Below, in pieces: positions 1 through 33,032 of a stretch of 64,000 bases of DNA. The position numbers and the translations under genes were made by a program. Below the pieces are notes generated by a model. It saw nothing but the letters and a program-made list of their open reading frames with translations. It searched no databases and was not told the DNA's origin. Positions within the stretch are counted from its first letter, which is position 1, and each line of letters begins with the position of its first letter. This stretch comes from Ureibacillus acetophenoni. GTDB lineage: Bacteria > Bacillota > Bacilli > Bacillales_A > Planococcaceae. The DNA lies in NCBI RefSeq assembly GCF_900220965.1, contig NZ_OBQC01000017.1, positions 1 through 64,000 on the forward strand, read 5' to 3'.

Positions 1-90
1 TAATATATATTAAATTACATTTTTTTAAAAGACCTATGCGTTAGCATGTAGTCTATGAAAATTAATATCTAGAAGTTAATGCCTTACAGA

Positions 91-158
91 AACTAACGGA
101 GGCAATTCTTCAATAAGAAAGATCGTCCTTTTTATTGAACAAAGGGAGTTTAGTTGAA
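91..158 (+). repeat. TP intergenic element, copy 1
   Basis: Begins AACTAACGGAGG, has a degenerate hairpin around CTTCAATAAGAAAG, then CCTTTTTATTGAAC, and ends GGGAGTTTAGTTGAAC. This is a full-length member of the family that punctuates the window. Bases 1 to 90 before it hold no recognisable gene. Confidence 0.7.
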
Positions 159-314
159 CTAATCTTTTTGTATATTGTTACTGTGATTATTGAAAGCAAA
201 GTATTAAATTTAACATAGAATAAGTATTAAAAGAGAAAAAATAGATCGTCTAGATATTTTATTCCTTGTTTTCGTTTTACATCCAAGTTCCTAAATGAGC
301 GAAGGTGAGTGAAC

Positions 315-701
315 ATGAAAAATAGAATAAAAACAAAAAGGATAAAAATACTCAGCGGAAACAGGGTAACTGGATTAACCGTTCAAGTTGCAGATACTCA
401 AGAAGAAAGAGAAAAGGGCTTAATGTTTGTTGAGCATTTACCCGAAAATGAGGGAATGTTATTTGTGTTTTCAAGAAAAACATACGGTGGCTTTTGGATG
501 AAAAACACATTAATTCCTTTATCGATTGCTTTTCTTGATTCCGACGGGGAAATTCTAAAAATACTTGATATGGAGCCTTGTATAGGGAATGAATGCCCTA
601 CCTATAATCCCAAACTTTCTTATCATTATGCAATCGAAGTGAACCTTGGATGGTTTGATAAGAATCAAATCAAAGAAGGGGATTATGTAAAGTTTGATTG
701 A
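315..701 (+). CDS. DUF192 family protein, copy A
   Basis: A 128-residue protein of the DUF192 (COG1430) family. The family core is visible: ADTQEEREKGLMFVEHLP, then GMLFVF, then FWMKNTLIPLSIAFLDSDG, with a late CIGNECPTY segment. No signal peptide or membrane helix is seen, although many relatives are exported. I chose the ATG at 315 because AAGGTGA sits about six bases before it; the GTG at 309 falls inside that binding site. The biochemical role of the family is not established. A second copy with only a handful of substitutions starts at 12435 and shares about 120 bases of upstream sequence, so this is a recent duplication or gene conversion. Confidence 0.85.
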   Translation: MKNRIKTKRIKILSGNRVTGLTVQVADTQEEREKGLMFVEHLPENEGMLFVFSRKTYGGFWMKNTLIPLSIAFLDSDGEILKILDMEPCIGNECPTYNPKLSYHYAIEVNLGWFDKNQIKEGDYVKFD

Positions 702-760
702 ATACATCTCACCTCTAAAAACTAGGACCATTTCTATTAGGTTTTTTGTTAAGTTAAAAG

Positions 761-812
761 TGGCTATTCTTCAATAAGAAGAGTAGCTTTTTTGTTGTAA
801 ACTAACGAGCAA
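761..812 (+). repeat. TP element, hairpin and left part
   Basis: GGCTATTCTTC pairs with GAAGAGTAGCT and is followed by TTTTTTGTTGTAA and ACTAACGAGC. It can end transcription of the DUF192 gene before it. The right-end TTGAAG motif is eroded. Confidence 0.6.
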
Positions 813-879
813 AATACTTTAAGAAAGATTCTTGAATTTTATGGTATTCTTTAGGGGAGATAGATTAGGGGGATGCCAA

Positions 880-1176
880 ATGGACAAGTTCACGAAATGG
901 TTTATAGCATCATTTATATTAGGGAGTGTAGGGCTAATAGCAGTATTTTTCGTGGAAGATATTGCAAGAGTAACGGGTGAATTGAATCGAAGCATTTTGT
1001 TAGTTAGCACTATAACAATATTCTTTTTAATTCTATCTTCTATATTTAGTATTGTTAAAGCGAATTCAAATAGAATACAAGGGGAATTAGTTCTCTCTGC
1101 CCTTATTTCCATAATTCCTCTATCAGCTTTAGTCATAAATGGGTTAATTTTTACGATTTATTTTGTAGGTAAGTAA
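880..1176 (+). CDS. Small integral membrane protein
   Basis: A 98-residue protein with three hydrophobic segments, roughly residues 6-25, 37-56 and 72-92, so it should span the membrane three times. The ATG at 880 follows TAGGGGG by about seven bases; a longer reading frame from 832 has no comparable site and adds non-hydrophobic residues. I do not recognise the family. It stands alone between two stretches of TP-type sequence, like most genes here. Confidence 0.65.
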   Translation: MDKFTKWFIASFILGSVGLIAVFFVEDIARVTGELNRSILLVSTITIFFLILSSIFSIVKANSNRIQGELVLSALISIIPLSALVINGLIFTIYFVGK

Positions 1177-1273
1177 TGTGGCTATTGTGAAGAAAAGTGC
1201 TTAAAGTAACGAGGCGTTTCAGGAATAAGCAGGAGGCAGTTTATTAGAAGGTTTGGTCAGGAGGCACTAAAGT

Positions 1274-1774
1274 TTGAAAAAAATTATTTTATTTTTAAGC
1301 GTGTTATTTTTAGTTGCTTGTTCTAGTGAAGAAGTGAAATATGATGGAGCTCCACTAAATATTGCAGTATTTGGTGATCTTCCAGAAGTTAAAAATAAAA
1401 ATATCCATTTTGAATTATTAACACTAGAAACGCTAAGCGAGGATACATCAAATATTGCTTTAAACTTTAATGCAATTATGATAACACCTTCAGTATTTGA
1501 AGAAGCATCAGACGATAGATTTGTAGAAGTATATAAAAGTTTAGAAACCCCAATTATATTTTTTGATACAAATAAAAGGCATTATCCTTTTGTAAATGAA
1601 AGTATTACTTATGAATCCGCGTATTTTGATGTTTTAGATAATGGTTCCCACACTACAATTTACATAGCTGATACCAAACTGAATAGAGAAGATGCTTGGT
1701 ATTTTTATTTAGAAGATAAAAAAGACGTTAATGTACTATACTCAGAAATCTTTAAAAAGATTGAGAATTTATAG
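1274..1774 (+). CDS. Putative lipoprotein, unknown function
   Basis: A 166-residue exported lipoprotein. The N-terminus has two lysines, a hydrophobic core and the lipobox LVAC with the modified Cys at residue 16. The start is TTG, with AGGAGG about ten bases upstream. The mature part is acidic and contains no motif I can name; the segment LNIAVFGDLPE suggests an alpha/beta fold. It probably sits on the outer face of the membrane. It is followed by a good terminator. Confidence 0.7.
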   Translation: MKKIILFLSVLFLVACSSEEVKYDGAPLNIAVFGDLPEVKNKNIHFELLTLETLSEDTSNIALNFNAIMITPSVFEEASDDRFVEVYKSLETPIIFFDTNKRHYPFVNESITYESAYFDVLDNGSHTTIYIADTKLNREDAWYFYLEDKKDVNVLYSEIFKKIENL

Positions 1775-1862
1775 CGAATAAATCATTCCTTATAACACAA
1801 CAGGATTAGAAAACAACGATTTGAAGACTGCTGAAGTCAAAAGCAATTAAATAAGTAACAGG

Positions 1863-1900
1863 GGGATTTTACAATGAATACGATGTGAAATCCCTTTTTT
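1863..1900 (+). terminator. Rho-independent terminator
   Basis: GGGATTTTACA pairs with TGTGAAATCCC and is followed by six T residues. It is not of the TP family and likely ends the lipoprotein transcript before it. Bases 1901 to 2080 hold only a degenerate TP fragment near 2000 (ACTAACGAGG). Confidence 0.75.
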
Positions 1901-2080
1901 CATTTTCATTTCATTTATTGATGGTATGACTTGCCACACATATTAGAGTGCTCAAAGATACATGGCGCTAGCTTCTTATTCAAGTAAAGCGAGCGTAGAC
2001 TAACGAGGTAAGTCATTTCAATAAGAACTTTGAATAATTTATATAAAGATTGCAGTTTAAATCGGTAAAGGGGGTTTGCT

Positions 2081-2476
2081 TTGTTTAGAAAAAACATTAT
2101 TCCGTTATTAGTTATTCTCCTTTTATTAAGTGCTTGTTCAAATTACAAAACGCGTGTTTATAAAGGCGAAACAAGTGATTGGAAGGCTGACTATGTTTAT
2201 AAAGAGACTTCTACCAAAGGATATGAATATATATTTCAATTAACTTACAAAAATGATGTTAGTGGACTTTCAGAGTTAAAAGATTTTACGATCAAATTTA
2301 AGGCTGGTTCTGGTGAAACCGGTGGCACTTTACCTATTAGTATTTTAAAAAATGGGGCATTTACAAGCAGTGGTGCATACGAGGGGACTAGTTTATTACG
2401 AGAGGATTCTCAAATTAAAGTGTATGTTAATTGGGGGACCAACGAAGATTCGTTTGTATTAGAATATAACGATTAA
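2081..2476 (+). CDS. Putative lipoprotein, unknown function
   Basis: A 131-residue lipoprotein with signal LLVILLLLSAC and the lipidated Cys at residue 19. It uses a TTG start after a GGGGG-type binding site. The mature domain is rich in Thr, Gly and aromatic residues and looks beta-rich, for example the stretches VYKETSTKGYEYIFQLTYK and IKVYVNWGTNEDSFVLEY. No family is recognised. It is followed by a TP element. Confidence 0.7.
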   Translation: MFRKNIIPLLVILLLLSACSNYKTRVYKGETSDWKADYVYKETSTKGYEYIFQLTYKNDVSGLSELKDFTIKFKAGSGETGGTLPISILKNGAFTSSGAYEGTSLLREDSQIKVYVNWGTNEDSFVLEYND

Positions 2477-2510
2477 AAGCTATAAACACTTATCCACATA
2501 GGTTATTCGG

Positions 2511-6054: not shown

Positions 6055-6083
6055 CAAAACAATGAGATTGGAGAAGTGCTGTT

Positions 6084-6120
6084 TTATATTGAACTAACGG
6101 GGCAGATAAGTTTAATAAGA
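6084..6120 (+). repeat. TP element, right half only
   Basis: TTATATTGAACTAACGGGGCAG is present without the hairpin. An extended -10 motif, TGGTATAAT, follows at about 6125. Bases are consistent with a promoter for the gene at 6167. Confidence 0.6.
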
Positions 6121-6511: not shown

Positions 6512-6544
6512 AACTAACGAACGTACTATATTATCCTTATTGTG

Positions 6545-6616
6545 CTAACGGAGGTGTTTCTTAAAGATATTAAAATGCCTTTTTTTATTGAACTAACGGG
6601 GCAGGATAGTTGAAGA
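6545..6616 (+). repeat. TP element, full copy
   Basis: CTAACGGAGGTGTTTCTT, poor hairpin, ATGCCTTTTTTTATTG, AACTAACGGGGCAGG and ATAGTTGAAGAAG. TTGAAG is 15 bases from TATTAT; the next start codon is 43 bases past the element. Confidence 0.75.
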
Positions 6617-7703: not shown

Positions 7704-7721
7704 GGAGAAACATATTTTCTT

Positions 7722-7810
7722 TATTGAAGTAACGGAGGCTTACCTTTTAGAAGGTGAAGTCCTCTATTTTGTTGAAGTTATTGTACTAACGGGGCAGTTT
7801 AGTTGAAAAA
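7722..7810 (+). repeat. TP element, full copy
   Basis: TTGAAGTAACGGAGG, hairpin GGCTTACCTTTTAGAAGGTGAAGTCC, TTGTTGAAG, GTACTAACGGGGCAG and TTTAGTTGAAAAAGG. TTGAAA is exactly 16 bases from TATTAT, a plausible sigma-A promoter for the gene at 7859. Confidence 0.8.
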
Positions 7811-8434: not shown

Positions 8435-8444
8435 CAATTTTCTT

Positions 8445-8485
8445 GTTCAACTAACGAAGGCTTTAGTTTAACAAGAAATACTTAA
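8445..8485 (+). repeat. TP element, left part
   Basis: GTTCAACTAACGAAGGCTTT followed by AGTTTAACAAGAAA. The hairpin is eroded. It lies between two convergent genes. Confidence 0.5.
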
Positions 8486-8527: not shown

Positions 8528-9697
8528 TCAAATTGCACTCTTTGTTTTGTAGGATGTCTTTTTCTTACTCTTAACAGAAATGTTAACAGTAATTAAAGAT
8601 AAGGTGATTAATATTCCGCCTGCAAATGGATTTACCTTGACTGAAAGTGTATCTACGATTCCAGCTCCAATAATTGAACCAACAGCAACACCTAAATGAA
8701 GAGCAGAATTATTCAAGCTTTGCTGAATTTCAGATGATTCAGGCGCTATTTCAATTAAATAAATTTGCATTGCCGGCGAAATTGCCCAACTGAGTATCCC
8801 CCATACGATAATGATGATGAAATAAACTGGTAAGAAATCTGTTGAATATGGGAATACAAAGAATAAAGCACTAAAAATAATTAGAGCAATAACCATTGTT
8901 TTTCTAGAGCCTAATTTGTCTGCCAATACACCGCCAATTCCTCCGCCGAATACAGCAGCAATACCAAAAATTAAATAGATGATACTAATCCAATTAGCAT
9001 TAAAATCAGTGGTTACTTCTAAATATGGTTTAAAATATGCATACATAATAGTATGCCCTGTTATATACAGGAATGTCGTTGTTAACCCTAATGTGATTTT
9101 GTGATTTTTAAATGCTGAAAGCTGTTGCTTTAAGGGAATTTGAGGCTTTGGCTCTATACGTCCCATAAATAAATGAACACCAATTATTGATAATGCGGTC
9201 AATACAGTTATTAGAACGAATGGTGCTCTCCAGCCAAAACTATTTCCTAGGAGTAGCCCGATCGGTACCCCTAAAACTAATGAAGCACTTACTCCCATAG
9301 AGACAATCCCAATGGCTCTACCTTTATACTGTTCTCCTGCTAAGCTAGGTGCCATAACTAAACACAATATGATTAATAGAGCACCGCTTAATGCTAAAAT
9401 AATTCTTCCAATAAACAATATAGTGAAAGTAGGTGCAAATACTGTTACGATACAACCGCTAAAAAATATGTATAAACAAACTAATTGTAACTTTTTCCTC
9501 TCTACTTTAGCTGTCATAACAAGTAAAATTGGCGATGCAATTGCAAAAATTAACGCAAAAACAGTGATCAACAAACCAGCTTGTCCGATGCTTACATTAA
9601 AATCTTCTGCAATTAAATCTAAAATGCCGCCAATGATCAGTTCAACCATCCCTATTACAAAGGATATAATCATTAAAAAATAAATACGCTTATCCAT
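8528..9697 (-). CDS. MFS transporter, DHA1 type
   Basis: A 389-residue integral membrane protein with twelve predicted spans. Motif A is clearest in the loop between spans 8 and 9 (GGVLADKLGSRKTMV); span 5 has the antiporter-like GVSASLVLGVPIGLLLG. It resembles the AraJ/YdhP-type drug:proton antiporters, which export small hydrophobic compounds or sugars; the substrate is unknown. Of two close ATG codons I chose the inner one (9697), which has GAGG six bases upstream. It is one of the few minus-strand genes in the first half. Confidence 0.85.
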   Translation of the reverse strand: MDKRIYFLMIISFVIGMVELIIGGILDLIAEDFNVSIGQAGLLITVFALIFAIASPILLVMTAKVERKKLQLVCLYIFFSGCIVTVFAPTFTILFIGRIILALSGALLIILCLVMAPSLAGEQYKGRAIGIVSMGVSASLVLGVPIGLLLGNSFGWRAPFVLITVLTALSIIGVHLFMGRIEPKPQIPLKQQLSAFKNHKITLGLTTTFLYITGHTIMYAYFKPYLEVTTDFNANWISIIYLIFGIAAVFGGGIGGVLADKLGSRKTMVIALIIFSALFFVFPYSTDFLPVYFIIIIVWGILSWAISPAMQIYLIEIAPESSEIQQSLNNSALHLGVAVGSIIGAGIVDTLSVKVNPFAGGILITLSLITVNISVKSKKKTSYKTKSAI

Positions 9698-9940
9698 GTT
9701 TAACCTCATTTCTAACTATATCCCAACCTAAATACTATCTCTTAATGAAAGTTTGCTCAAGAATAAGATAACATTTTCATAAGAAAAAAATAATTACGTA
9801 AATCCACAAGAATTGAAAAATATATACAATTAAATTTGCCAGTAAGGGCGAAATATTAAGCATTTTAAATTTGTGGGATATCTTCCTATCTAATCTAATT
9901 GGTAGAAAAACGAATAAATCTTTATTTGAGTTAATTCTTA

Positions 9941-10020
9941 TTCAACTAACGAGGGCGTTTCTTCAAGAAAGAGAAATGCTTTTTCTTACTGAAGTAAAGG
10001 GGCAGGTTAGTTGGAGAAGG
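9941..10020 (+). repeat. TP element, full copy with terminal inverted repeat
   Basis: Starts TTCAACTAACGAGG, hairpin GGCGTTTCTTCAAGAAAGAG, AAATGCTTTTTCTTACTG, and ends GGGGCAGGTTAGTTGGAG. The ends CAACTAAC and GTTAGTTG are an 8-base perfect inverted repeat. This is the clearest example of the two ends. Confidence 0.85.
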
Positions 10021-10709: not shown

Positions 10710-10786
10710 ACTCATAGAACCAGTTGGTGGAGGGTACTCCCTTGATGGAAAAACTCCTTAATGAAATATGGGATTAATGATTGGTT

Positions 10787-10876
10787 ATTCAACTAACGAA
10801 GGCGTTGATCCAAGAAGGATTAATGTCTTTTTTTATTGAACTTAATGTACTAACAGGGCAGTAGATTTGAAGAAAG
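10787..10876 (+). repeat. TP element, full copy
   Basis: TTCAACTAACGAAGG, hairpin GGCGTTGATCC / GGATTAATGTC, TTTTTTTATTGAA, ACTAACAGGGCAG and ATTTGAAGAAAG. TTGAAG is 15 bases before TATAGT. The next gene starts 54 bases after it. Confidence 0.8.
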
Positions 10877-11236: not shown

Positions 11237-11470
11237 ATGCATTGGGGAGATATGGTTATTGAGTCCAAAATTTTTAGGCTAATTATTAAAGGAGCCTTTT
11301 GGACTTCTATTGCCCTAGCTATACTTATTTTACTTATGATAAGTAATTTCTTTTTCAAAATCATATTTTTAGATTATCGATTCGATGATGGCGAACTACA
11401 TCCACCCATTGAGGTTTCGATAAGTAATGGCTACCTAACTAACATTGACATTGATCCAAAGAGGGATTGA
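11237..11470 (+). CDS. Small membrane protein with element-derived C-terminus
   Basis: A 77-residue protein with one long hydrophobic segment (about residues 15-45). The last dozen residues (YLTNIDIDPKRD) are encoded by the left end and hairpin of a TP element, so the original C-terminus was probably lost or extended. GAGGGGGGAAA precedes the ATG. The function is unknown. Confidence 0.5.
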   Translation: MHWGDMVIESKIFRLIIKGAFWTSIALAILILLMISNFFFKIIFLDYRFDDGELHPPIEVSISNGYLTNIDIDPKRD

Positions 11471-11492
11471 TGTCTTTTTCGTTGAAGTTATT
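11434..11492 (+). repeat. TP element overlapping a coding end
   Basis: CCTAACTAACATTGAC, hairpin CATTGATCC / GGATTGATG, TCTTTTTCGTTGAAG. The family hairpin is used here as coding sequence and probably also as terminator. Confidence 0.65.
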
Positions 11493-12168: not shown

Positions 12169-12434
12169 TTTATTCGACCTCCTTAAGAATTTTTTATTTA
12201 CTTTGTAATTATATCCATCTTTAAGTTGTTTGTAAACATTTTTTGCCAATTTTCCTGAAATATGCTAATGGTTGGAGAAATTGTTAGGTGATTAGTGAAT
12301 ACAATGTATTAAATTTAAAACTAAAGAATAGGTATTAAAAGTGAAAAACAGATTACCTAGTTATTTTTTCTTCATGTTTTCGTTTTATATCCAAATTTCT
12401 TTCCTGCTTATTATATGAGCGAAGGTGAGTGAAC

Positions 12435-12821
12435 ATGAAAGATAGAATAAAAACAAAAAGGATAAAAATACTCAGCGGAAACAGGGAAACTGGATTAACC
12501 GTTCAAGTTGCAGATACTCAAGAAGAAAGAGAAAAGGGCTTAATGTTTGTTGAGCAATTACCCGAAAATGAGGGGATGTTATTTGTGTTTTCAAGAAAAG
12601 TATATGGTGGCTTTTGGATGAAAAACACATTAATTCCTTTATCGATTGCTTTTCTTGATTCAGATGGGGAAATTCTAAAAATACTTGATATGGAGCCTTG
12701 TAAAGGGAATGAATGTCCTACCTATGATCCCAAACTTTCTTATCATTATGCAATCGAAGTGAACCTTGGATGGTTTAATAAGAATCAGATCAAGGAAGGG
12801 GATTATGTAAAGTTTGATTGA
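12435..12821 (+). CDS. DUF192 family protein, copy B
   Basis: A 128-residue near-duplicate of the protein at 315. Changes include V to E near residue 21 and H to Q near residue 41. Most codons are identical and the binding site and part of the upstream region are shared. All family motifs are intact, so both copies may be functional. The pair brackets 12 kb of accessory genes and offers a direct repeat for recombination. Confidence 0.85.
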   Translation: MKDRIKTKRIKILSGNRETGLTVQVADTQEEREKGLMFVEQLPENEGMLFVFSRKVYGGFWMKNTLIPLSIAFLDSDGEILKILDMEPCKGNECPTYDPKLSYHYAIEVNLGWFNKNQIKEGDYVKFD

Positions 12822-12887
12822 TTTGTCTCACCTCTAAAACTAGGGGTGAGGTGGTATTAAAGGCTTTCACTAACTATAAATGAAATC

Positions 12888-12942: not shown

Positions 12943-13830
12943 CTAGTCTAATATTTTGACCTTTAATTGTTTTACTCCGAAATTAATTGCATCTTGTTTA
13001 GATGGAACAAAGACATCAATTCGATTGCCTTTAATCGCCCCGCCAGTATCCCCAGCGATGGCTTCACCATAGCCTTCAACATATACTTTACTACCAAGTG
13101 GAATGATAGACGGATCAACTGATATTACTTTTGCATCCGGATTTTCTTTTAGGTTAATTCCAGTAGCAGTAATACCTGAACATCCCTCACATGTAGCGGT
13201 ATAGGCTGTAGCCTCCACTGTTATTTCCTTTACATCAGCTTTAGTTGTTGATGGAGCAGATGGTTCAGTTTCTGCTTTATTAGTAGATGGAGTTGCTTCA
13301 GCTTCCGCTTTATTTGTTGGCGGAGCAGTTACCTCAGTTTGTACTTTATTTGAAGATGGTGTAGTCTCCACTTTTTTTTCTTTATTTGTTGACTGAGCGC
13401 TTACATCAGGAGTAGTTTCCTTTGATTTTGATGCTACAAGTACTACCTGCTTTTCAGCATTACTATTCTTTATACCTTCAAAGATTACTAGGTTTAACCC
13501 AGGTTTTATGAGATCCGTCTGTAATTGGTTCCATTCTTTAATTTGCGAAACTCTCACTTGATGATCTCGGGCTATTTCCCACAATGTGTCACCATTTTTA
13601 ACTGTATACTGTTTTTCCGTTACAATCGCTAGGACATCCCCAGGGTGTATAAGGTCTGTAGTAAGGTTATTAAATTTCTGTAAATTTTCTACAGTTGTAT
13701 TATTAGCACGAGATAAATCCCATAGGGTATCTCCTTTTTCTACTGTAACCGTTTCAGCTTGTGCACTAGTACCTAAAGTTAACGTAAGTGCAGCTACTGG
13801 AATAATTGAAATCATTTTTTTAAACATCAT
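12943..13830 (-). CDS. LysM / 3D-domain cell wall protein, YocH-like
   Basis: A 295-residue secreted wall protein. Residues 1-25 are a signal peptide ending AQA. Two LysM repeats follow (VEKGDTLWDLSRANNTT and VKNGDTLWEIARDHQV), which bind peptidoglycan. A Thr/Lys/Ala/Pro linker with repeated TEA/TKA units leads to a C-terminal 3D domain (VEATAYTATCEGCSGITATG, then GDTGGAIKGNRIDVF) with the conserved Asp residues of lytic transglycosylase-type beta barrels. It closely matches the architecture of B. subtilis YocH, a muropeptide-releasing wall enzyme. Two adjacent ATG codons follow GGAGG. Confidence 0.85.
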   Translation of the reverse strand: MMFKKMISIIPVAALTLTLGTSAQAETVTVEKGDTLWDLSRANNTTVENLQKFNNLTTDLIHPGDVLAIVTEKQYTVKNGDTLWEIARDHQVRVSQIKEWNQLQTDLIKPGLNLVIFEGIKNSNAEKQVVLVASKSKETTPDVSAQSTNKEKKVETTPSSNKVQTEVTAPPTNKAEAEATPSTNKAETEPSAPSTTKADVKEITVEATAYTATCEGCSGITATGINLKENPDAKVISVDPSIIPLGSKVYVEGYGEAIAGDTGGAIKGNRIDVFVPSKQDAINFGVKQLKVKILD

Positions 13831-13977
13831 TTTGCCTCCATCTTCTTAGGTTGCGATTCTATAATAATCGTAGCATAGAATTTTCTGAGAAAAAGAACAG
13901 GGAGGTGTTAATTCGTTTACGTCCATGGCAGTTATATTGCAAGACCATGTCCATGTTACAAGATATAAGTAATGCAA

Positions 13978-14045
13978 GGCATTAATCAAGAAGGATTAAT
14001 GCCTTTTATGTGGAAGTTACTGAACTAACGGGGCAGGTTAAGATT
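13978..14045 (+). repeat. TP element, full copy
   Basis: Hairpin GGCATTAATC / GGATTAATGCC, TTTTATGTGGAAG, TGAACTAACGGGGCAGG and TTAAGATT. TTAAGA is 16 bases from TATTAT, a possible promoter for the lipoprotein starting at 14092. Confidence 0.75.
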
Positions 14046-14632: not shown

Positions 14633-14711
14633 TTTAACTAATAGGGATGTTTCTTTGTGAAAGTGAAATGCCTTTTTTATTTGAGTATCAGGGTAGCCCA
14701 TTGAAGAATAA
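14633..14711 (+). repeat. TP element, full copy
   Basis: TTAACTAATAGGG, hairpin GATGTTTC / GTGAAATGCC, TTTTTTATTTGAG and a degenerate right end with CATTGAAGAATA. Confidence 0.65.
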
Positions 14712-15102: not shown

Positions 15103-15168
15103 CTTAACGAGGGCATTGATCCAAGAAGGATTAATGCTTTTTTGTTGAAGTGAAGGGATAGCTTAGAT
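15103..15168 (+). repeat. TP element, full copy
   Basis: TTAACGAGGGCATTG, hairpin GGCATTGATCC / GGATTAATGCT, TTTTTGTTGAAG and a degenerate right end. An extended -10 (TGTATAAT) follows at about 15187. Confidence 0.7.
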
Positions 15169-15236
15169 CAAAATCAATTTAAACTAATGTATAATTAAAA
15201 AATAATATTTATCTGAAATTCAGGAGATGTAGCAAT

Positions 15237-16621: not shown

Positions 16622-16685
16622 GAGGTAGGCATTTCTTTTTGAAGGAGAAATGCTTTTTCTTATTGAAGTAAAGAAGCAGAAGTAT
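16622..16685 (+). repeat. TP element, hairpin and TTATTGAAG part
   Basis: GGCATTTCTTTTTGAAGGAGAAATGCT followed by TTTTCTTATTGAAGTAAAG. TTGAAG is 17 bases from TTTATT. The open frame of the next gene runs back into this element. Confidence 0.7.
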
Positions 16686-19957: not shown

Positions 19958-19969
19958 TAAAAAGTGTGA

Positions 19970-20025
19970 ACAGAGGCGTTGATCCCAAAAGGATTAATGC
20001 CTTTTTTGTTAAATTAGTTTAGAAG
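19970..20025 (+). repeat. TP element
   Basis: AACAGAGGCGTTGATCC, hairpin with GGATTAATGCC, TTTTTTGTTAAA and TTAGTTTAGAAG. Confidence 0.65.
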
Positions 20026-20077
20026 ACATGTGCTTTTGGCATCCTAATAAGATATATCAATATAAGGGATGGAAAAA

Positions 20078-20528: not shown

Positions 20529-20587
20529 TTAGGGCATTTCTTTTTGAAGGAGAAATGCCTTTTCTTATTGAAGTAAACGAGCATGGG
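20529..20587 (+). repeat. TP element, hairpin and TTATTGAAG part
   Basis: GGGCATTTCTTTTTGAAGG and AGAAATGCCTTTTCTTATTG, then AAGTAAACGAGCA. The stem is perfect, of the GGCATTTCT/AGAAATGCC subtype. Confidence 0.7.
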
Positions 20588-22236: not shown

Positions 22237-22265
22237 ATTCAGATTATTATGATTCCTTCGCAACA

Positions 22266-22312
22266 TTTAACTAATGAAAGCGTTTCTGTAATATACAGGA
22301 ACGCTTTTTCAC
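22266..22312 (+). repeat. TP element with variant hairpin
   Basis: TTTAACTAATGAAAG, hairpin AGCGTTTCTGT / ACAGGAACGCT, TTTTTCAC. The stem is unlike other copies yet pairs well and has a T run; the right end is missing. Confidence 0.65.
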
Positions 22313-22775: not shown

Positions 22776-22785
22776 AAGAATCTTC

Positions 22786-22822
22786 TTCAACAAACGGCGT
22801 AGGGGCAGTTTAGTTGCACAAG
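22786..22822 (+). repeat. TP element, right end only
   Basis: TCTTCAACAAACGGCGTAG, GGGCAGTTTAGTTGCAC. No hairpin. The next gene starts 35 bases later. Confidence 0.55.
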
Positions 22823-23660: not shown

Positions 23661-23725
23661 CTAACTAACGGAGGTTTTAATTATTACTAAAACTGATCCA
23701 CCTAAAAGTGGATCTTTTTTTATTA
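23661..23725 (+). repeat. TP left end joined to another terminator
   Basis: CTAACTAACGGAGG is followed by TGATCCACCTAAAAGTGGATC and a T run at 23694-23721. The hairpin is not the usual type. Further degenerate TP remnants lie at 23768-23812. Confidence 0.65.
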
Positions 23726-23880
23726 TTCTCAAATATAAAATGATGAGTATTAATGTTACTAAATTAGGCAGTGCCGGTTCAAGAAGGAGTAACGTCCCTT
23801 TGTGTTGAAGTATTTGTAATTCCTGTTATTACTTGCAATGGGAATTAGTGAACCATAAAAACAGACTCAACTTCAACGAT

Positions 23881-23958
23881 AGAGGGTGTTTCATAAAGGA
23901 GAAGAAATGCCTATTCTTATTGAAGTAAGTGAATCACTAACGGCGGAAGCATAGTTTC
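23881..23958 (+). repeat. TP element, full copy
   Basis: AGAGGGTGTTTC, degenerate hairpin with AGAAATGCC, TATTCTTATTGAAG, CACTAACGGCGGAAGC. The region 23639-24003 contains only such repeats. Confidence 0.65.
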
Positions 23959-24003: not shown

Positions 24004-24561
24004 ATGGAGATTGAGAGAATTTATAGCGAATTACCAATATTAGAAACTGAACGACTTATTCTTAGAAAGGTTACATTAGAAGACGTTGAAGATATGTATT
24101 TATACGGTTCTGATGATGAAGTAACAAGATATGTCACTTGGGATACACATAAATCCATTAACGACTCAAAAGGATTTATTCAATTCATTTTAAACAGGTA
24201 TGAAAATCAGCAAGTCGCTCCGTGGGGAATTGAATATAAGGAAAATGGAAAATTCATTGGAACGATTGATTTTGTTTGGTGGCAACCAAATCATAAAACT
24301 GCTGAAATCGGTTATGTTCTAGCAAAAGAGTATTGGGGAAAGGGTTTAACTACAGAAGCGGTAAAGGAAATCATAAGATTTGGTTTTAATGAAATGGATT
24401 TAGTTCGCATTCAAGCAAGATGTTTAGTAGAAAACATCGGTTCATCCCGCGTAATGGAAAAGTCGGGAATGCAATTCGAAGGAACCATTAGAAAAGGGAT
24501 GTTTATTAAAGGAAAACATCAAGATTTAAAAATGTATTCGATATTAAAAGAAGACTTTTAA
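24004..24561 (+). CDS. GNAT acetyltransferase, RimJ/RimL type
   Basis: A 185-residue GNAT. LETERLILRKVTLEDVEDMY is the typical RimJ/RimL start; AEIGYVLAKEYWGKGLTTEA carries the acetyl-CoA loop (Y-W-G-K-G-L-T); NIGSSRVMEKSGMQFEG and RKGMFIKGKHQDLKMYSIL end the domain. Family members acetylate ribosomal proteins or small amines. ATG has GGAGG eight bases upstream. A decayed copy of its second half lies at 28037. Confidence 0.88.
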   Translation: MEIERIYSELPILETERLILRKVTLEDVEDMYLYGSDDEVTRYVTWDTHKSINDSKGFIQFILNRYENQQVAPWGIEYKENGKFIGTIDFVWWQPNHKTAEIGYVLAKEYWGKGLTTEAVKEIIRFGFNEMDLVRIQARCLVENIGSSRVMEKSGMQFEGTIRKGMFIKGKHQDLKMYSILKEDF

Positions 24562-24589
24562 ATATCTATATATAAAACCACTAACTGAT

Positions 24590-24648
24590 TTGACTAACTA
24601 GGGCGTTGATCTAAGAAGGATTAATGTCCTTTTTTGTTGAAGTGATTG
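24590..24648 (+). repeat. TP element
   Basis: TGACTAACTAGGGCG, hairpin GGCGTTGATC / GGATTAATGTCC, TTTTTTGTTGAAGTG. The right end is missing; the next start is 20 bases on. Confidence 0.7.
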
Positions 24649-24667
24649 TAAAGAGAAGGTGATTAAA

Positions 24668-25544: not shown

Positions 25545-25614
25545 AACAATAAGGGATTTGATCTGTTACGGGGCAATTAGTATATTAAGAAATGCAGAAT
25601 ATTGGGGTGAATAT

Positions 25615-26403: not shown

Positions 26404-26458
26404 AGTATACGAAAAACTAATTCTTTATAAGAATGATAGAAAGTCTTAAATAATAATA

Positions 26459-26517
26459 TTCAACTAACTAGGGTGTTAATCCAAGAAGGATTAATGCCTT
26501 TTCTTATTGAAGTAAAC
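26459..26517 (+). repeat. TP element
   Basis: TTCAACTAACTAGGG, hairpin TGTTAATCC / GGATTAATGCC, TTTTCTTATTGAAGTAA. TTGAAG is 17 bases from TAAATT. The expected right end is replaced by debris of another gene. Confidence 0.75.
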
Positions 26518-26545
26518 CTACAATGGAGTTAAATTCTGTAAAAAG

Positions 26546-27871: not shown

Positions 27872-27873
27872 CA

Positions 27874-27918: not shown

Positions 27919-27998
27919 AATAACTAACGGAGGGGTATTTCCAACAAGGATTTACTCCTTTTCTGAACAGGGAAGTAATGTTTGAAAGGGGTAAAAAC
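27919..27998 (+). repeat. TP element, variant type
   Basis: ATAACTAACGGAGGGG, hairpin GTATTTCC / GGATTTACTCC, TTTTCTGAACAGGGAAG and TTTGAAAGGGGTAAAAAC. The right part is almost identical to that of the copy at 29813. Confidence 0.7.
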
Positions 27999-28036
27999 AT
28001 GGGATACATACAAGAGTTAAGGAAAATTGTTGGCCA
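27999..28036 (+). pseudogene. Nudix hydrolase 5' remnant, copy 1
   Basis: ATG after AAAGGGG, encoding MGYIQELRKIVGH, the usual start of a Firmicutes Nudix hydrolase. It breaks off after 13 codons into GNAT-derived sequence. An equivalent remnant starts at 29914. Confidence 0.65.
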
Positions 28037-28323
28037 TGTGGCAACCAAATCACAATATTACTGAGATTGGTTATGTTTCTATCTAAAGAGTATTGGGGAA
28101 TGGGTTTAACTACTGAAGCGGTAAAGGGAAATAATAAGATTTGGTTTTAATGAAATGGATTTAGTTCCCATTCAAGCGAGATGTTTTGTAGAAAATATTG
28201 GTTCATACAGCGTAATGGAAAAGTAGAGAATGCAATTTGAAGGGATTATTAGAAAAGGGATGTTTGTTAAAGGAAAACATCAAGATTTAAAAATGTATTC
28301 TATATTAAGAGAAGATTTTAATT
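28037..28323 (+). pseudogene. Decayed C-terminal half of a RimL-type GNAT gene
   Basis: Aligned by eye to 24274-24561, the DNA is close to identical over about 290 bases: GTGGCAACCAAATCA, AAAGAGTATTGGGGAA, GTTTAACTAC and AAAGGAAAACATCAAGA are all kept. In-frame stops (TAA after TTTCTATC, TAG in AAAAGTAGAG) and indels abolish coding. It is fused to a Nudix gene start, so it arose by duplication plus deletion. Confidence 0.85.
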
Positions 28324-28428
28324 AACACTTAGGCGCGTATTCTTTGGTAGGCATTACATAAGGCATTAAGTCGGGGCTGTTAATTTAATAAGAGTAAAGA
28401 ACTAACTGATATAATACATATAAAAAAA

Positions 28429-28454
28429 CAGACAGAATGAGATAATTCTGTCTG
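28429..28454 (-). terminator. Terminator of MBL-fold gene
   Basis: CAGACAGAAT pairs with ATTCTGTCTG and, read on the minus strand, is followed by seven T residues. Confidence 0.8.
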
Positions 28455-28463
28455 ACTTTAGCT

Positions 28464-29243
28464 TTAAAATGAATATGATTCGCCATCATTTGGTACTAAC
28501 ACATTAGACGTAATTTTTTTTTCTTTAATAAAGTTCTTTAATTCTTCCCTTGATAATGTCCAATGATTTACAGCTTCCATGTGGACAGCAATGACTTTCG
28601 CCTCTGGTGCAGCCTTAACTACCTCATTGACATCATCTTTCCCCATTACAAGAGAACCACCCACTAGGAATTGATTATCACCAGCATTAACAACAATGAT
28701 TTCTGGTTTATGTGTTTCAATAACTTCTTGTACCGCATCATACCAAACTGTATCGCCAGCAACGTATAATGTTTTCTCATTTACATGCTTAAAGACAACA
28801 CCACAAGTGTGACCAGCATGCTCTAAGATTTCTCCTCTGCCATGCTCGGCTTTTGTTTTAATTAATTGAATCCCTTCATAAATTGTATCCTCTTGTAACA
28901 CTACTACATTTCGAAAACCAGTGTTTCTGATTACTGTTGCATCTTCTTCATTTTGTGCAAATAATTTGATGTCTTTTGACAATGCTTCAATTGCGGCTTC
29001 ATCCCAGTGGTCAGGATGTAAATGAGTAACAATAACAGCATCAATATTAGATATAATATTGTCAATGCTTGTTGGTAAACTCACTAAAGGATTATTTTGA
29101 TCTTCTCTTGGTGCTGGGGGTAAACCAACACCTGTTCCAAATGGTGGCATAGTTCCTTTTTCTGCTAACATTGGGTCAATCAAAAACTTTTTCCCTGCGT
29201 ATTCAACAACGATTGTTGCATTACGAATGTGGTGTATATTCAT
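28464..29243 (-). CDS. MBL-fold metallo-hydrolase, UlaG-like
   Basis: A 259-residue cytoplasmic enzyme. The metal site is VTHLHPDHWDEAA (H-x-H-x-D-H), with further ligands in HAGHTCG, VAGDTVW and AVHMEAVNHW. It resembles the UPF0173/UlaG-type beta-lactamase-fold hydrolases that act on phosphodiesters or lactones; the substrate is unknown. AAGGAG precedes the ATG. It is divergent from an Lrp-type regulator, which is the obvious candidate for its control. Confidence 0.88.
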   Translation of the reverse strand: MNIHHIRNATIVVEYAGKKFLIDPMLAEKGTMPPFGTGVGLPPAPREDQNNPLVSLPTSIDNIISNIDAVIVTHLHPDHWDEAAIEALSKDIKLFAQNEEDATVIRNTGFRNVVVLQEDTIYEGIQLIKTKAEHGRGEILEHAGHTCGVVFKHVNEKTLYVAGDTVWYDAVQEVIETHKPEIIVVNAGDNQFLVGGSLVMGKDDVNEVVKAAPEAKVIAVHMEAVNHWTLSREELKNFIKEKKITSNVLVPNDGESYSF

Positions 29244-29285
29244 CTATATAAACTCCTTTTTTTACGATTTACTTTGAACAATGTA

Positions 29286-29323
29286 TAGTCTAAACTATGA
29301 CCTCCAGTGGAATACATAGACTA
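29286..29323. promoter_or_regulatory. Inverted repeat in divergent promoter region
   Basis: TAGTCTA (29286-29292) and TAGACTA (29317-29323), about three helical turns apart between centres, between the divergent MBL and Lrp-type genes. This spacing would suit a dimeric or wrapped regulator such as an Lrp protein. Binding is inferred. Confidence 0.5.
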
Positions 29324-29371
29324 AATAAAGTTTTTTGACCGTTTGACTTTAATAATGAAAGGAGTTAGCGA

Positions 29372-29782
29372 ATGCTAGATCATACAGACATGAAAATCAT
29401 AGAAGAACTCTCTAAGAACAGTCGAATTACAATGAAAGAATTGGGAAAGATAGTTCATTTAACAGGTCCAGCTACATCAGCTAGAGTTGCAAAATTAGAA
29501 GAAAGTGGAGTTATTGAAGGTTATACCATTAATGTAAATCAAGAAAAATTAGGATATCATATACATGCTTTTATTACCATTATTACAGAAAGCATATTTC
29601 ATCAGCCATATCTGTCATTCATCAAAACACAAGAGAAGTATCTAGTAAATAACTTTAAAATCAGTGGAGATGGTTGTTACATTCTTGAATGTCAATTTCC
29701 ATCCACTGAAGTAATGAATCAATTTCTAGAAGAATTAAACGTGCATGCAAACTATAAATTATCCATTGTTATTGATAAATAG
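29372..29782 (+). CDS. Lrp/AsnC family regulator
   Basis: A 136-residue regulator. The N-terminal helix-turn-helix is visible in LDHTDMKIIEELSKNSRITM and LGKIVHLTGPATSARVAKLEESGVI, followed by the RAM ligand/oligomer domain (YTINVNQEKLGY to the end). It is slightly shorter than typical family members of 140-165. It is divergently arranged with the MBL hydrolase, a common local-regulator layout. AAAGGAG precedes the ATG. Confidence 0.88.
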   Translation: MLDHTDMKIIEELSKNSRITMKELGKIVHLTGPATSARVAKLEESGVIEGYTINVNQEKLGYHIHAFITIITESIFHQPYLSFIKTQEKYLVNNFKISGDGCYILECQFPSTEVMNQFLEELNVHANYKLSIVIDK

Positions 29783-29812
29783 TAATTGAATACAATGCAA
29801 AGTATGTCAATA

Positions 29813-29902
29813 TATTTGCTTAAACTAAAGAGGTGTTGATCAACAAGGATTTACGCCTTTTCTGTTGAAGTTAATGTACTAACAGGGAAGTAATGTTTGA
29901 AA
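29813..29902 (+). repeat. TP element, variant type
   Basis: TTAAACTAAAGAGG, hairpin GTGTTGATC / GGATTTACGCC, TTTTCTGTTGAAG, TACTAACAGGGAAG and TTTGAAAGGGG. Shares its right end with the copy at 27919. Confidence 0.7.
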
Positions 29903-29913
29903 GGGGTAAAAAC

Positions 29914-29967
29914 ATGGGATACATACAAGAGTTAAGGGAAATTGTTGGCCATAGACCAATGATATGA
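29914..29967 (+). pseudogene. Nudix hydrolase 5' remnant, copy 2
   Basis: ATG after AAAGGGG, encoding MGYIQELREIVGHRPMI then TGA. A shifted frame continues as FVGSVTIL, resembling the next residues of a Nudix protein. The body is gone; 29968-30120 contains another short frame, MILDEFLAKHYSKEKITKG, of unknown origin. Confidence 0.65.
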
Positions 29968-30663: not shown

Positions 30664-30725
30664 GCTGTGTTAATCCAATGATTAATGCACTAACGGGTCA
30701 ATTAGTACAATATTGGAGGGGACCT

Positions 30726-31352: not shown

Positions 31353-31428
31353 AATAATATCACAGGAAATCACTGGCAGGGAAATCAAATTGTAATGGGT
31401 ATCAATAAGAATAACAGGAGTGAATAAG

Positions 31429-32094
31429 GTGAAACAGGAAGTTTGGGAAAAAGAATATCGAAATGTGGATAACTTGTGGGGATTTACTCCAAACAATATA
31501 TTGCTAAAATATATTGACCTTGTTCCTAAAGGTGGAAAGGTATTAGATGTTGGTATTGGGGAAGGTAGAAATGCCCTCTTTTTTGCTAAGCAAGGGTTTG
31601 TGGTACAAGGTATAGATATATCTGAGACTGCAATAAATAGGTGTCTGGATCTTTCAAAAGAACACAATCTTAAAATCGTTGCGAAAGTTGATGACATTAG
31701 AAACTATGAAGTAAAGAAAGACCAATACTCATTAATCATACTTTCTAACGTACTTAATTTTTTCCCAGATCACGAGATTAGTGAAATAATTGCCAAACTA
31801 AAGAATGGGTTAAAAGAAAACGGTTTAATATATATCAATGTATTTGATAATGAAGAACCTAGCTTAACGAAAGCAAAGGAAAGATGTAAGCAGATAGCCG
31901 ATTTCACTTACTACGACGAGAAAAATGAAATGTATCATCATTATTTTACTCAAGATGAGTTAAAAAACTTAGTGGCTGAACATGAAACTATCAGTCTGGT
32001 TAAATCTCGATTTTTAGATATGACTCACGGACAACCACACTATCACAGTACATTAGAGATTCTGTCTAAAAAGACTAATGAATATATACCTTGA
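31429..32094 (+). CDS. SAM-dependent methyltransferase, TehB-like
   Basis: A 221-residue class I methyltransferase. Motif I is VLDVGIGEGRNALFFAKQG, followed by GIDISETAINR, an acidic DDIRNY loop and SLIILSNVLNFFP. It is most like TehB-type small-molecule methyltransferases (tellurite or thiol methylation), but the substrate is not known. I chose the GTG at 31429, eight bases after CAGGAG; the GTG at 31420 overlaps that site. Confidence 0.85.
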   Translation: MKQEVWEKEYRNVDNLWGFTPNNILLKYIDLVPKGGKVLDVGIGEGRNALFFAKQGFVVQGIDISETAINRCLDLSKEHNLKIVAKVDDIRNYEVKKDQYSLIILSNVLNFFPDHEISEIIAKLKNGLKENGLIYINVFDNEEPSLTKAKERCKQIADFTYYDEKNEMYHHYFTQDELKNLVAEHETISLVKSRFLDMTHGQPHYHSTLEILSKKTNEYIP

Positions 32095-32212
32095 TAACGA
32101 GGGGAAGTTAATTGAAAATCGATGTTTACCTTGTGTATCACAAGATAGGAACGGATTGTGGCACGTATGCTAAAATCAAAGATGAATAAGTTATAAAGGA
32201 AGAACGATTTTA

Positions 32213-32395
32213 ATGAAGGTTAAGAACAAAAATTTAATTATGGTTTCAGTAATCATTTTCTCATTTATTGTAATATCCATTGTTGCGAATTATAACTCTC
32301 TTGAAAATGCAAAAGATAGTTGTGTAGAAAATAATAAGACTCCTAGTATTGAACAAGACTTTCTAGCAATTAATTGGGCTGTTTCTTGTGAATAA
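32213..32395 (+). CDS. Small membrane-anchored protein
   Basis: A 60-residue protein with one span (about 8-25) and an outside tail containing two Cys residues (DSCVENNK and WAVSCE), possibly a disulfide. AAAGGAAGAA precedes the ATG. The function is unknown. Confidence 0.55.
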   Translation: MKVKNKNLIMVSVIIFSFIVISIVANYNSLENAKDSCVENNKTPSIEQDFLAINWAVSCE

Positions 32396-32463
32396 TAAAT
32401 AATTATCTAGCGCTTGTCTTTAATGAGAAAGCGACTTTTTGCATAGATAACACAAATAAGATT

Positions 32464-32536
32464 ATTTCACCAACGAGGGTATTTCTCAAGAAGGAGAAAT
32501 GCCTTTTCTTATTGAAGTAAGGGTTAGTTAAAGAGG
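32464..32536 (+). repeat. TP element, full copy
   Basis: TTTCACCAACGAGGG, hairpin TATTTCT / AGAAATGCC, TTTTCTTATTGAAG, GGGTTAGTTAAAGAGG. Left CCAAC and right GTTAG ends pair in part. Confidence 0.75.
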
Positions 32537-32583
32537 TATGACAAAACCAAGTAGAGGGGAAAAGAATAATAACGAGTCAAAAG

Positions 32584-32820
32584 GTGAAATTTATTGAGTT
32601 TGGTATAGGTAATACTTGGCTAATAAGAACTGAAGTTGAACTTAAAGATGGTACGGAATATGAGGTAAAGGGCATTAAAGGTCCAATCGAATTTCAATCA
32701 TTATATTTAAGAATTTGGATTGGTAAAACTGTCTTTATCTTTGATTTAAAAGATGGGTTTAAAAAAGTTAAAAAGAATAGAAAAGAATATAAATTGATAT
32801 TTGGTATTGTAAGCAAGTAG
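32584..32820 (+). CDS. DUF3977 family protein
   Basis: A 78-residue soluble protein: MKFIEFGIGNTWLIRTEVEL, then GPIEFQSLYLRIWIGKTVFIF and GFKKVKKNRKEYKLIFGI. This is the full DUF3977 domain, of unknown function, common in Bacillales. GTG start; the binding site is poor. Confidence 0.8.
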   Translation: MKFIEFGIGNTWLIRTEVELKDGTEYEVKGIKGPIEFQSLYLRIWIGKTVFIFDLKDGFKKVKKNRKEYKLIFGIVSK

Positions 32821-32999
32821 TTGTTGAGGCAGATCAAGTTAAAGTTATTTGGAAAGATGGACATGAACGTATCGAGACTATAGACAATCGCCACGCATTA
32901 ATAATTCCTTATGATAATAAAACTGCAAATATATCAAAACAGGTTTCTAAAGTCTATTTACTAGATGAGAGTGGGGAAATTATCTTTGAAGTTTTATAG
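32820..32999 (+). pseudogene. Orphan C-terminal coding remnant
   Basis: A 59-codon open frame with no start signal, reading VVEADQVKVIWKDGHERIET, then VSKVYLLDESGEIIFEVL before a TAG. Composition and the DGHERIET/DESGEII pattern look like true protein. The 5' part has been lost. It starts exactly where DUF3977 stops, in another frame. Confidence 0.5.
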
Positions 33000-33032
33000 T
33001 TGTTATTTTCTTTACTTTTACTAGACGAAAAT

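What the first reader, a model, noticed from the sequence alone, without database searches (positions are those of the whole stretch)
1..33000. Dispersed intergenic element that combines a terminator and a promoter
About thirty copies of one element separate the genes in the first half. Full copies run: AACTAACG, a terminator-type hairpin, T residues, TTATTGAAG, ACTAACGGGGCAG, GTTAGTTGAAGAA. In several copies the right end gives a -35-like TTGAA(G/A) hexamer with a TATTAT-type box at the right distance: 7722 copy (TTGAAA, 16 bases, TATTAT), 6545 copy (TTGAAG, 15, TATTAT), 2511 copy (TTCCAC, 16, TATTAT), 13978 copy (TTAAGA, 16, TATTAT), 10787 copy (TTGAAG, 15, TATAGT). Next start codons lie 35 to 60 bases beyond. 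This would make every gene an insulated transcription unit. Intergenic repeat families are known in Bacillales, but I do not know one described as a terminator-promoter pair.
Basis: partly seen in the sequence, partly recalled or inferred. Interest (0 to 1): 0.78.

Follow-up and report, generated by a model that had tools for sequence, protein, structure and literature searches.

The report
Integron-like gene cassette array in Bacillales
The repeated element between the genes looks like the worn recombination site of an apparently undescribed, integron-like system by which Bacillus relatives collect and swap single genes; the same site also brackets some well-known antibiotic-resistance genes on Gram-positive plasmids.

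Summary
The repeats are real, but are best read as recombination sites of a gene-cassette array, not as terminator-promoter modules. The core is CTTATTGAACTAAC-GGGGCAG-GTTAGTTGAATAAG: 14-bp inverted arms (13 of 14 complementary), 7-bp asymmetric spacer. The window's 3.98-Mb genome has 18 cores (up to 3 mismatches), all in one orientation, on three contigs. Other Bacillales genera carry dense, mostly one-way arrays. In them, on the opposite strand, lies a ~279-aa tyrosine recombinase. Across 68 recombinase loci 335 cores lie on the opposite strand, 9 on the same. A conserved attI-like stretch precedes the first cassette in 22 of 67 loci. Homology between shared cassettes switches inside the core; two closely related Paenisporosarcina genomes differ by replacements, 6 of 10 ends on sites. 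Terminators are real and look like tiny ORF-less cassettes; promoters are not enriched. The window's genome has no recombinase match: probably a fossil array. The recombinase fails the IntI model: integron-like, not an integron. Such sites bracket cat of pC194, dfrK and, degenerately, dfrG. Recombination itself was not shown.

The parts
1..33000 (+). right-hand part of an array of small genes (lipoproteins, GNATs, NUDIX, methyltransferase, DUF192 twice, about half without a Pfam family) separated by one-way sites; most genes on +, with 8528-9709, 12943-13830 and 28464-29243 on -; sites also on contigs C9 (102-149 kb) and C4
90..151 (+). full element: A-type site (AACTAACGGAGG), hairpin, right arm
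   Evidence: E 7.8e-10
757..811 (+). degenerate element with terminator hairpin 762-788 and CTAACGAG core at 802
   Evidence: (E 0.12)
1204..1255 (+). partial site AAGTAACGAGGC
2000..2020 (+). partial site CTAACGAGGTAA
2503..2583 (+). full element: A-type site 2511, hairpin, B-type core CTAACGGGGCAG at 2567
6070..6114 (+). B-type core CTAACGGGGCAG at 6094 (no terminator mini-cassette)
6536..6613 (+). full element: A-type site 6545, hairpin, B-type core 6593
7721..7806 (+). full element: A-type site, hairpin, B-type core 7786
8442..8479 (+). single site TTCAACTAACGAAGG
   Evidence: E 0.0028
9937..10014 (+). full element: A-type site 9946, hairpin, B-type core GTAAAGGGGCAG at 9994
10785..10863 (+). 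full element: A-type site 10793, terminator 10798-10830, B-type core CTAACAGGGCAG 10850
11447..11492 (+). terminator-only copy
   Evidence: (E 0.035)
13966..14041 (+). element: hairpin and B-type core 14025
14633..14687 (+). A-type site and hairpin
   Evidence: E 5.4e-5
15104..15170 (+). A-type site, hairpin, degenerate core
   Evidence: E 4.8e-14
16623..16682 (+). hairpin 16627-16655 and degenerate core
19968..20027 (+). element with terminator 19972-20004
20530..20585 (+). element with terminator 20531-20561
22265..22310 (+). weak A-type copy with hairpin
   Evidence: E 0.035
22780..22815 (+). degenerate site (not in the strict list); an 85%-identical segment shared with an array of another genus (L022) ends here at 22797
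23663..23714 (+). site AACTAACGGAGG and terminator 23695-23714; segment 23337-23669 shared with a recombinase locus of another genus (L154) ends here
23754..23812 (+). degenerate element
   Evidence: E 2.8e-6
23871..23940 (+). element copy
   Evidence: E 1.1e-12
24586..24667 (+). element with terminator 24600-24630
25562..25585 (+). degenerate B-type core GTTACGGGGCAA
26039..26075 (+). degenerate B-type core
   Evidence: E 0.029
26457..26536 (+). element with terminator 26470-26500
27920..27967 (+). A-type site and hairpin; start of the 72-nt duplicate 27966-28037
29820..29890 (+). element with core CTAACAGGGAAG 29879; 28373-29890 shared with a G010 array ends here; start of duplicate 29881-29952
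30688..30712 (+). B-type core CTAACGGGTCAA
32462..32524 (+). element with terminator 32475-32506
41733..41781 (+). further element copy right of the given range, next to a stop codon
   Evidence: E 5.9e-9

Best explanation
The element is the footprint of an integron-like cassette system of Bacillales. The conserved right end is a recombination core: two 14-bp inverted arms around GGGGCAG. Each half belongs to a different cassette: ...CTTATTGAACTAACG ends one cassette, and NNGCAGGTTAGTTGAATAAG... begins the next (to within a few bases). A dedicated ~279-aa XerC/D/A-like tyrosine recombinase, encoded in the arrays on the opposite strand beside a conserved attI-like stretch, would excise and insert single-gene cassettes at these cores. 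Because the spacer is asymmetric, cassettes point the same way. SHOWN by sequence comparison: orientation, linkage to the recombinase, the attI-like platform, where homology switches, and mostly site-bounded replacements between two closely related genomes. INFERRED: that this recombinase does the reaction, that circular cassettes exist, that the terminators end transcripts. In the window's own genome no recombinase was found and the cores are worn, so this array is probably an immobile remnant.
For: Own genome: 18 cores (<=3 mismatches), all +, on C9 102-149 kb, C4 and C32 (window) only; reversed-pattern control 0. Order: exact 20-mer in 58 of 261 genomes, 475 copies, reversed control 0. Recombinase >=77% identical (E<=1e-100): 24 of 32 such genomes have the 20-mer against 34 of 229 others (Fisher 7e-12); >=10 copies: 11 of 32 against 2 of 229. 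Strand coupling: 335 opposite, 9 same, in 68 loci of many genera, 65 of 68 with at least one opposite; shuffled sequence of all 79 loci gave 30 on both strands together. attI-like: first core 73-82 bp from the recombinase start in 22 of 67 loci; alignment score per base of the 70 nt before the core 0.61 in all 22 and 0.79 in 13 Planococcaceae-type loci, after the core 0.40 and 0.39, shuffled 0.38. Crossover: 84 left-homologous pairs differ at 0-1% of positions through TAACG, then at 44% and 56% of the next two; 73 right-homologous pairs agree from GCAG on (0-8%) and are intermediate just before (pairs are not independent). G034 vs G154 (blocks 96.6-99.8% identical): of 10 block ends read, 6 fall on sites. 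R138, K162, H228, R231 invariant in 19 of 19, H254 and Y263 in at least 90% (catalytic roles recalled). Window genes recur in recombinase loci or site-rich arrays of other genera (L132, L154, L121, L022).
Against: No recombination was observed. Eight of 32 recombinase-bearing genomes have no exact 20-mer, and 34 of 229 without a match have some, one (G154) with 46. In the window's own array only 7 of 78 ends of segments shared with other loci lie on sites (3 of 39 starts, 4 of 39 ends; 2.7% expected per end; p 0.09 and 0.02), so there the evidence is weak. Four of 10 block ends in G034/G154 are not on sites; two of these concern a small difference outside the array. Cores flank the recombinase on both sides (177 on its 5' side, 149 on its 3' side), unlike a classical integron with the integrase at one end. 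In left-homologous pairs the GCAG after the switch again agrees (4-6% mismatch), as expected if all B-type cassettes begin alike, but this blurs the switch point. A 65-67% identical recombinase clade shows the opposite strand bias (13 same, 2 opposite, 11 loci) and few cores.
Confidence: 0.83

Rival explanations
1. Terminator-promoter module: each copy ends one transcript and starts the next, insulating every gene.
For: Terminator-like hairpins are about 2.6-fold over chance in the window (33 vs 12.5); some right ends do carry TTGAA and TATTAT at promoter spacing.
Against: -10-like hexamers after 388 right ends are at shuffled level with no spacing peak; some cores have no terminator (6094; several); it explains neither the recombinase linkage nor the homology switch inside the core.
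Confidence: 0.05
2. Dispersed repeats (MITE or REP-like) between which ordinary homologous recombination shuffles genes, without a dedicated recombinase.
For: Short repeats exist at the junctions; arrays persist in genomes without a recombinase match (G000, G010; G154).
Against: Homology shared between copies is short (about 35-80 bp); one orientation; strict opposite-strand coupling to one recombinase family across many genera; attI-like platform.
Confidence: 0.07
3. dif-module type system: host XerC/XerD move modules between dif-like cores, as pdif modules in Acinetobacter.
For: Core architecture (inverted arms, short spacer) resembles Xer sites (recalled); the recombinase scores 207.6 and 200.9 bits with the XerD and XerC models.
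Against: Those scores are far below the cut-offs 329.6 and 335.2; tyrosine-recombinase genes were found in 16 of 16 genomes searched, 8 of which have no exact 12-mer; a dedicated recombinase sits in the arrays.
Confidence: 0.04
4. A true integron with an unusual IntI.
For: Similar layout: divergent integrase, attI-like site, one-way cassettes, small diverse genes.
Against: IntI model TIGR02249: 95.9 and 90.0 bits, cut-off 265; core is a short inverted repeat with no covariation signal for a folded single strand (a confounded test).
Confidence: 0.01

Closest known systems
[quoted passage not shown]
   Same: One-way arrays of small single-gene cassettes, ORF-less cassettes, tyrosine recombinase divergent from the array with a conserved platform before the first cassette, arrays without recombinase as likely remnants
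   Different: Recombinase is not IntI; core is ~35 bp with 14-bp arms and a 7-bp spacer; recombinase copies lie inside arrays; terminator mini-cassettes; host clade where complete integrons are reported as extremely rare (passages of PMC9024848)
pdif/dif modules (XerC/XerD), known mainly from Acinetobacter plasmids
   Same: Genes bracketed by short Xer-like cores
   Different: Dedicated recombinase, arrays of tens of cassettes, cores in one orientation (pdif papers seen as a search listing only; rest recalled)
XerA/XerC/XerD recombinases (NF040815)
   Same: Passes the NF040815 cut-off (224.2 and 224.1 vs 220); closest solved relatives by sequence XerD 1a0p, XerC-like 4a8e, XerA 5hxy
   Different: Up to several copies per genome, embedded in cassette arrays, no match at E<=1e-100 in 203 of 261 genomes
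Intergenic repeat families of Bacillales (such as bcr repeats; recalled)
   Same: Short, intergenic, hairpin-bearing, many copies
   Different: Clustered in one-way arrays and tied to a recombinase; not compared by sequence here

Membership tests
Integron | Integrase of the IntI family | tested here: not met
   TIGR02249 95.9 and 90.0 bits against cut-off 265
Integron | IntI-specific extra domain | tested here: inconclusive
   Best profile match to IntI4 (2a3v) covers only residues 200-266; AlphaFold model too poor to judge (mean pLDDT 59.4)
Integron | attI beside the integrase, cassettes pointing away from it | tested here: met
   22 of 67 loci with a core at 73-82 bp after a conserved stretch; strand coupling 335 to 9; but cores also lie on the other side of the recombinase
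Integron | attC site that folds as a long single-stranded hairpin, RYYYAAC/GTTRRRY boxes | tested here: inconclusive
   Boxes AACTAAC/GTTAGTT each miss the recalled consensus at one place; no pairing covariation at position -4/18 (z -0.25, n 544); other positions reach z 3.7 within a cassette, but the test is confounded by false sites
Integron | Cassettes exchanged as units bounded by the sites | tested here: met
   (6 of 10 block ends on sites); strain comparison, not an experiment
pdif module | dif-like 11-6-11 cores served by host XerC/XerD | tested here: inconclusive
   Arms of 14 and spacer of 7 by reading; comparison with dif is recalled, not computed
Terminator-promoter module | Intrinsic terminator | tested here: met
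   consensus scan, no transcripts
Terminator-promoter module | Promoter at the right end more often than chance | tested here: not met
Known structured RNA family | Match to an Rfam family | tested here: not met
   0 matches in the window at gathering cut-offs
MITE / REP repeat | Target-site duplications or a linked transposase | not tested
   Not examined

The most novel reading that the evidence does not exclude
Bacillales have their own gene-capture platform, convergent with integrons: a dedicated Xer-like recombinase, attI-like site, one-way single-gene cassettes and mobile terminator mini-cassettes, spread over many genera and some plasmids. Classical Gram-positive resistance genes (cat of pC194, dfrK, dfrG) are escaped cassettes of it.
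Probability: 0.65. Interest if true: 0.95.

Novelty: new variant of a known kind. Interest (0 to 1): 0.9.

Why it matters
Integrons are reported as extremely rare in Firmicutes; IntegronFinder 2.0 names one complete integron, in Limnochorda, and a few CALIN (passages of PMC9024848). If this is right, Bacillales run a comparable system that tools built on IntI and attC models would be expected to miss. It would explain how these bacteria gather GNATs, lipoproteins and orphan genes, it offers a route by which several textbook resistance genes reached staphylococcal and enterococcal plasmids, and it makes the question 'why so few integrons in Gram-positives?' directly testable.

Tried and rejected
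Promoter reading: rejected. Rfam: nothing at gathering cut-offs. ARAGORN: no tRNA in the window. Empty-site test of the window's array: the left-flank gene is found in 9 of 25 genus genomes and the right-flank gene in 4 of 25 (own genome counted in both); in G020, where both lie on one contig, they are about 2 Mb apart, so no empty site. Single-strand hairpin covariation: no clear support, and confounded. Structure model of the recombinase: too poor (mean pLDDT 59.4), not used for a fold search. Loose site lists (<=3 mismatches) gave many sites likely to be false in the own array, so a stricter list was used. Duplicate gene 174-726 / 12280-12844 (90%): its ends do not lie on strict-list sites. 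Phage collection: 4 recombinase hits, none above 60% identity. Literature: eight listings (45 showed 20 of 114 papers and 50 showed 10 of 41; titles and starts of abstracts) show no description of this site or system; preprints and most subscription papers are not held, so absence from print is not proved. A ninth, on dfrK (15 of 39 shown), was seen as a listing only.


Full report
WHAT WAS CHECKED. A profile from 16 window copies finds 21 copies in 1-33000 at E<=0.01 (16 of them the training copies), three more to the right, and 25 out-of-sample copies in 59,940 bases of contigs C9 and C4 of the same genome, all on the plus strand. The exact 12-mer CTAACGGGGCAG occurs 11 times in the 3.98-Mb genome, 11 forward and 0 reverse. 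The 20-mer core with up to three mismatches occurs 18 times, all forward, only on C9 102-149 kb, C4 (5.1 kb) and C32, the window. C9 ends and C32 begins inside the array, so the three contigs are probably neighbours; that order is inferred. The array would then be about 85 kb or more.

THE CORE. In other genera the copies are fresher. Reading them and counting 773 B-type sites with up to two mismatches gives CTTATTGAACTAAC-GGGGCAG-GTTAGTTGAATAAG: 14-bp inverted arms, complementary at 13 of 14 places, around a 7-bp asymmetric spacer, the build of a tyrosine-recombinase core. A second, A-type form reads CTAACGGGTGCTTTAGTTGAAG and opens an ORF-less piece of about 50-65 bp that is a hairpin with a T run and ends in the same left arm (by reading).

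DISTRIBUTION. Among 101 genomes (own included) the 12-mer is found in 32, with 87 copies in G029, 68 in G034, 59 in G054 and 17 in G047, in clusters that are mostly of one orientation (places listed in part). Among 261 genomes of the order (own included) the 20-mer occurs in 58, 475 copies in all, and the reversed control in none.

THE RECOMBINASE. A search for tyrosine recombinases in 16 genomes led to a ~279-aa family lying inside arrays on the opposite strand. It is XerA/C/D-like: NF040815 224.2 bits (cut-off 220), XerD 207.6 (329.6), XerC 200.9 (335.2), IntI 95.9 (265). Members at least 77% identical (E<=1e-100) occur in 32 of 261 genomes; 24 of these 32 have the 20-mer against 34 of the other 229, and 11 of 32 have ten or more copies against 2 of 229 (one of the two, G047, has recombinase fragments below the cut-off used). 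Against this, G154 has 46 copies and no match at that cut-off, and 8 of the 32 have no exact 20-mer. A genome-contig scan found 183 stretches that encode a relative and kept 79 loci, in many named Bacillales genera. In the 68 of these at 71% identity or more, 335 cores (up to two mismatches) lie on the strand opposite the recombinase and 9 on the same; 65 of 68 have at least one opposite. Shuffled sequence of all 79 loci gave 30 on both strands together. In the 11 loci at 65-67% the count is 13 same, 2 opposite, which I cannot explain. The window's genome has no match at E<=1e-45.

THE ATTI-LIKE PLATFORM. Of 67 loci looked at, 22 have a core 73-82 bp from the recombinase start; several others show a more worn core at the same place by eye. 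The alignment score per base of the 70 nt before the core is 0.61 over all 22 loci and 0.79 over 13 Planococcaceae-type loci; after the core it is 0.40 and 0.39, the shuffled level being 0.38. Cores lie on both sides of the recombinase (177 on its 5' side, 149 on its 3' side), so it is embedded in the array rather than at its end.

WHERE HOMOLOGY SWITCHES. Among 1141 sites, 84 pairs share the left flank but not the right, and 73 the reverse; the pairs are not independent. Left-sharing pairs agree through TAACG (0-1% mismatch), disagree at the next two bases (44% and 56%), agree again at GCAG (4-6%), which B-type cassettes share anyway, and disagree beyond it. Right-sharing pairs agree from GCAG onward (0-8% there), are intermediate at the three bases before, and differ further left. 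A cassette is therefore roughly NNGCAG...CTAACG in linear form. Comparing G034 with G154, whose colinear blocks are 96.6-99.8% identical, whole stretches of array differ; of ten block ends that I picked from the BLAST table and read, six fall on sites, two array-side ends do not, and two belong to a small difference outside the array. In one case a single stretch of 0.65-0.77 kb is swapped between two sites.

THE WINDOW. Of 39 window proteins of 1-33 kb scanned, 19 matched a Pfam family over its cut-off, one only below it, and 19 none. Hits include GNATs, NUDIX, a methyltransferase, DUF192 twice, MFS, aldo-keto reductase and AsnC-type and TetR regulators; a 40th protein scanned, at 33.1 kb, is an OpuAC binding protein. 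Segments of the window match recombinase loci or arrays of other genera (331-717 in L132 at 86%; 23337-23669 in L154 at 85%; 22402-22797 in L022 at 85%; 23970-24567 in L121 at 78%). Of 39 shared segments of the own array, 3 starts and 4 ends lie on sites (2.7% expected per end; p 0.09 and 0.02), a weak signal, as one would expect of a worn array. The 72-nt duplicate 27966-28037 / 29881-29952 begins inside the core.

TERMINATOR AND PROMOTER. Terminator-like hairpins exceed chance in both halves (18 vs 7.0 +- 2.8; 15 vs 5.5 +- 2.7; 10 of the 33 on element copies). Promoter-like pairs do not (55 vs 70.8 +- 9.4; 80 vs 86.2 +- 10.6). After 388 right ends -10 boxes are at shuffled level (0.0180 vs 0.0175) without a spacing peak. 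Single promoters in single copies remain possible.

PLASMIDS AND RESISTANCE GENES. A 34-nt core query matches 70 of 72,556 plasmids at E<=0.1; 42 of the 70 match over at least 80% of it, and the shorter matches may include chance. A recombinase relative (E<=1e-60) is on 7 (one, 84.6% identical, on Sporosarcina psychrophila pSP10-266k). On S. hyicus pKKS966 dfrK (1016-1507 of L179) lies between exact cores at 944 and 1510. On pC194 the cat gene (1260-1910) lies between an exact B-type core at 1974 and a one-mismatch A-type site at 1102, both on the minus strand; primers for pC194 cat printed in PMC4403831 sit on these sites (passages seen). dfrG on an Enterococcus raffinosus plasmid lies between two three-mismatch sites with recognisable arms; three-mismatch hits without arms also turn up by chance in these stretches. 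These are descriptions of position only.

MECHANISM. Best reading: Xer-like, site-specific excision and insertion of cassettes at the core, with the asymmetric spacer setting one orientation. Whether the reaction uses double strands or a folded single strand is open; the one test I made gave no clear sign of pairing and is confounded. It works like an integron; it is not shown to be one, since the IntI test failed.

NOVELTY. Eight listings showed no description. The 12-mer itself appears in 8 papers; in the two that I opened it is in primer tables. IntegronFinder 2.0 reports one complete integron in Firmicutes and a few CALIN (passages). Preprints were not searchable.

Noticed in passing
L179 944-1520; L185 448-1401; L186 722-1309; L187 203-1075: dfrK, dfrG and the pC194 cat gene lie between two copies of the site (dfrG's are degenerate); cat is reversed relative to the sites.
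   Followed up: partly
L181 1319-1347 (Vibrio phage Rostov 7): A 27-of-29 match to the core, itself palindromic, lies just before a phage site-specific integrase gene; possibly its attP.
   Followed up: no
L180 4001-4034 (Klebsiella grimontii pNY3A): A near-perfect core (94% over 34 nt) on an AT-rich stretch of a plasmid filed under Klebsiella; transfer or a mislabelled assembly.
   Followed up: no
L153, L155-L164: A 65-67% identical recombinase clade with few nearby cores shows the opposite strand bias (13 same, 2 opposite).
   Followed up: no
G054 C1 1.45-2.59 Mb: Listed cores are mostly + up to about 2.01 Mb and mostly - from 2.07 to 2.53 Mb (list partial), as if oriented by replichore around the terminus; origin not located.
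   Followed up: no
L001 1-1136 and L002 1889-2609: Tandem repeats of about 52 bp in the left flank of, and inside, the own array.
   Followed up: no
L005 7941-8780 and L008 15448-16287: The same recombinase (100% protein identity) with its neighbouring cassette at two places about 88 kb apart in Paenisporosarcina sp. HGH0030; by reading, each border of the shared 1.27 kb lies on a site.
   Followed up: yes
window 28038-28324: A copy of part of the GNAT gene 24279-24564 (89%) where no open frame of 60 aa is listed on +, following the start of another duplicated stretch that ends at 28037.
   Followed up: partly
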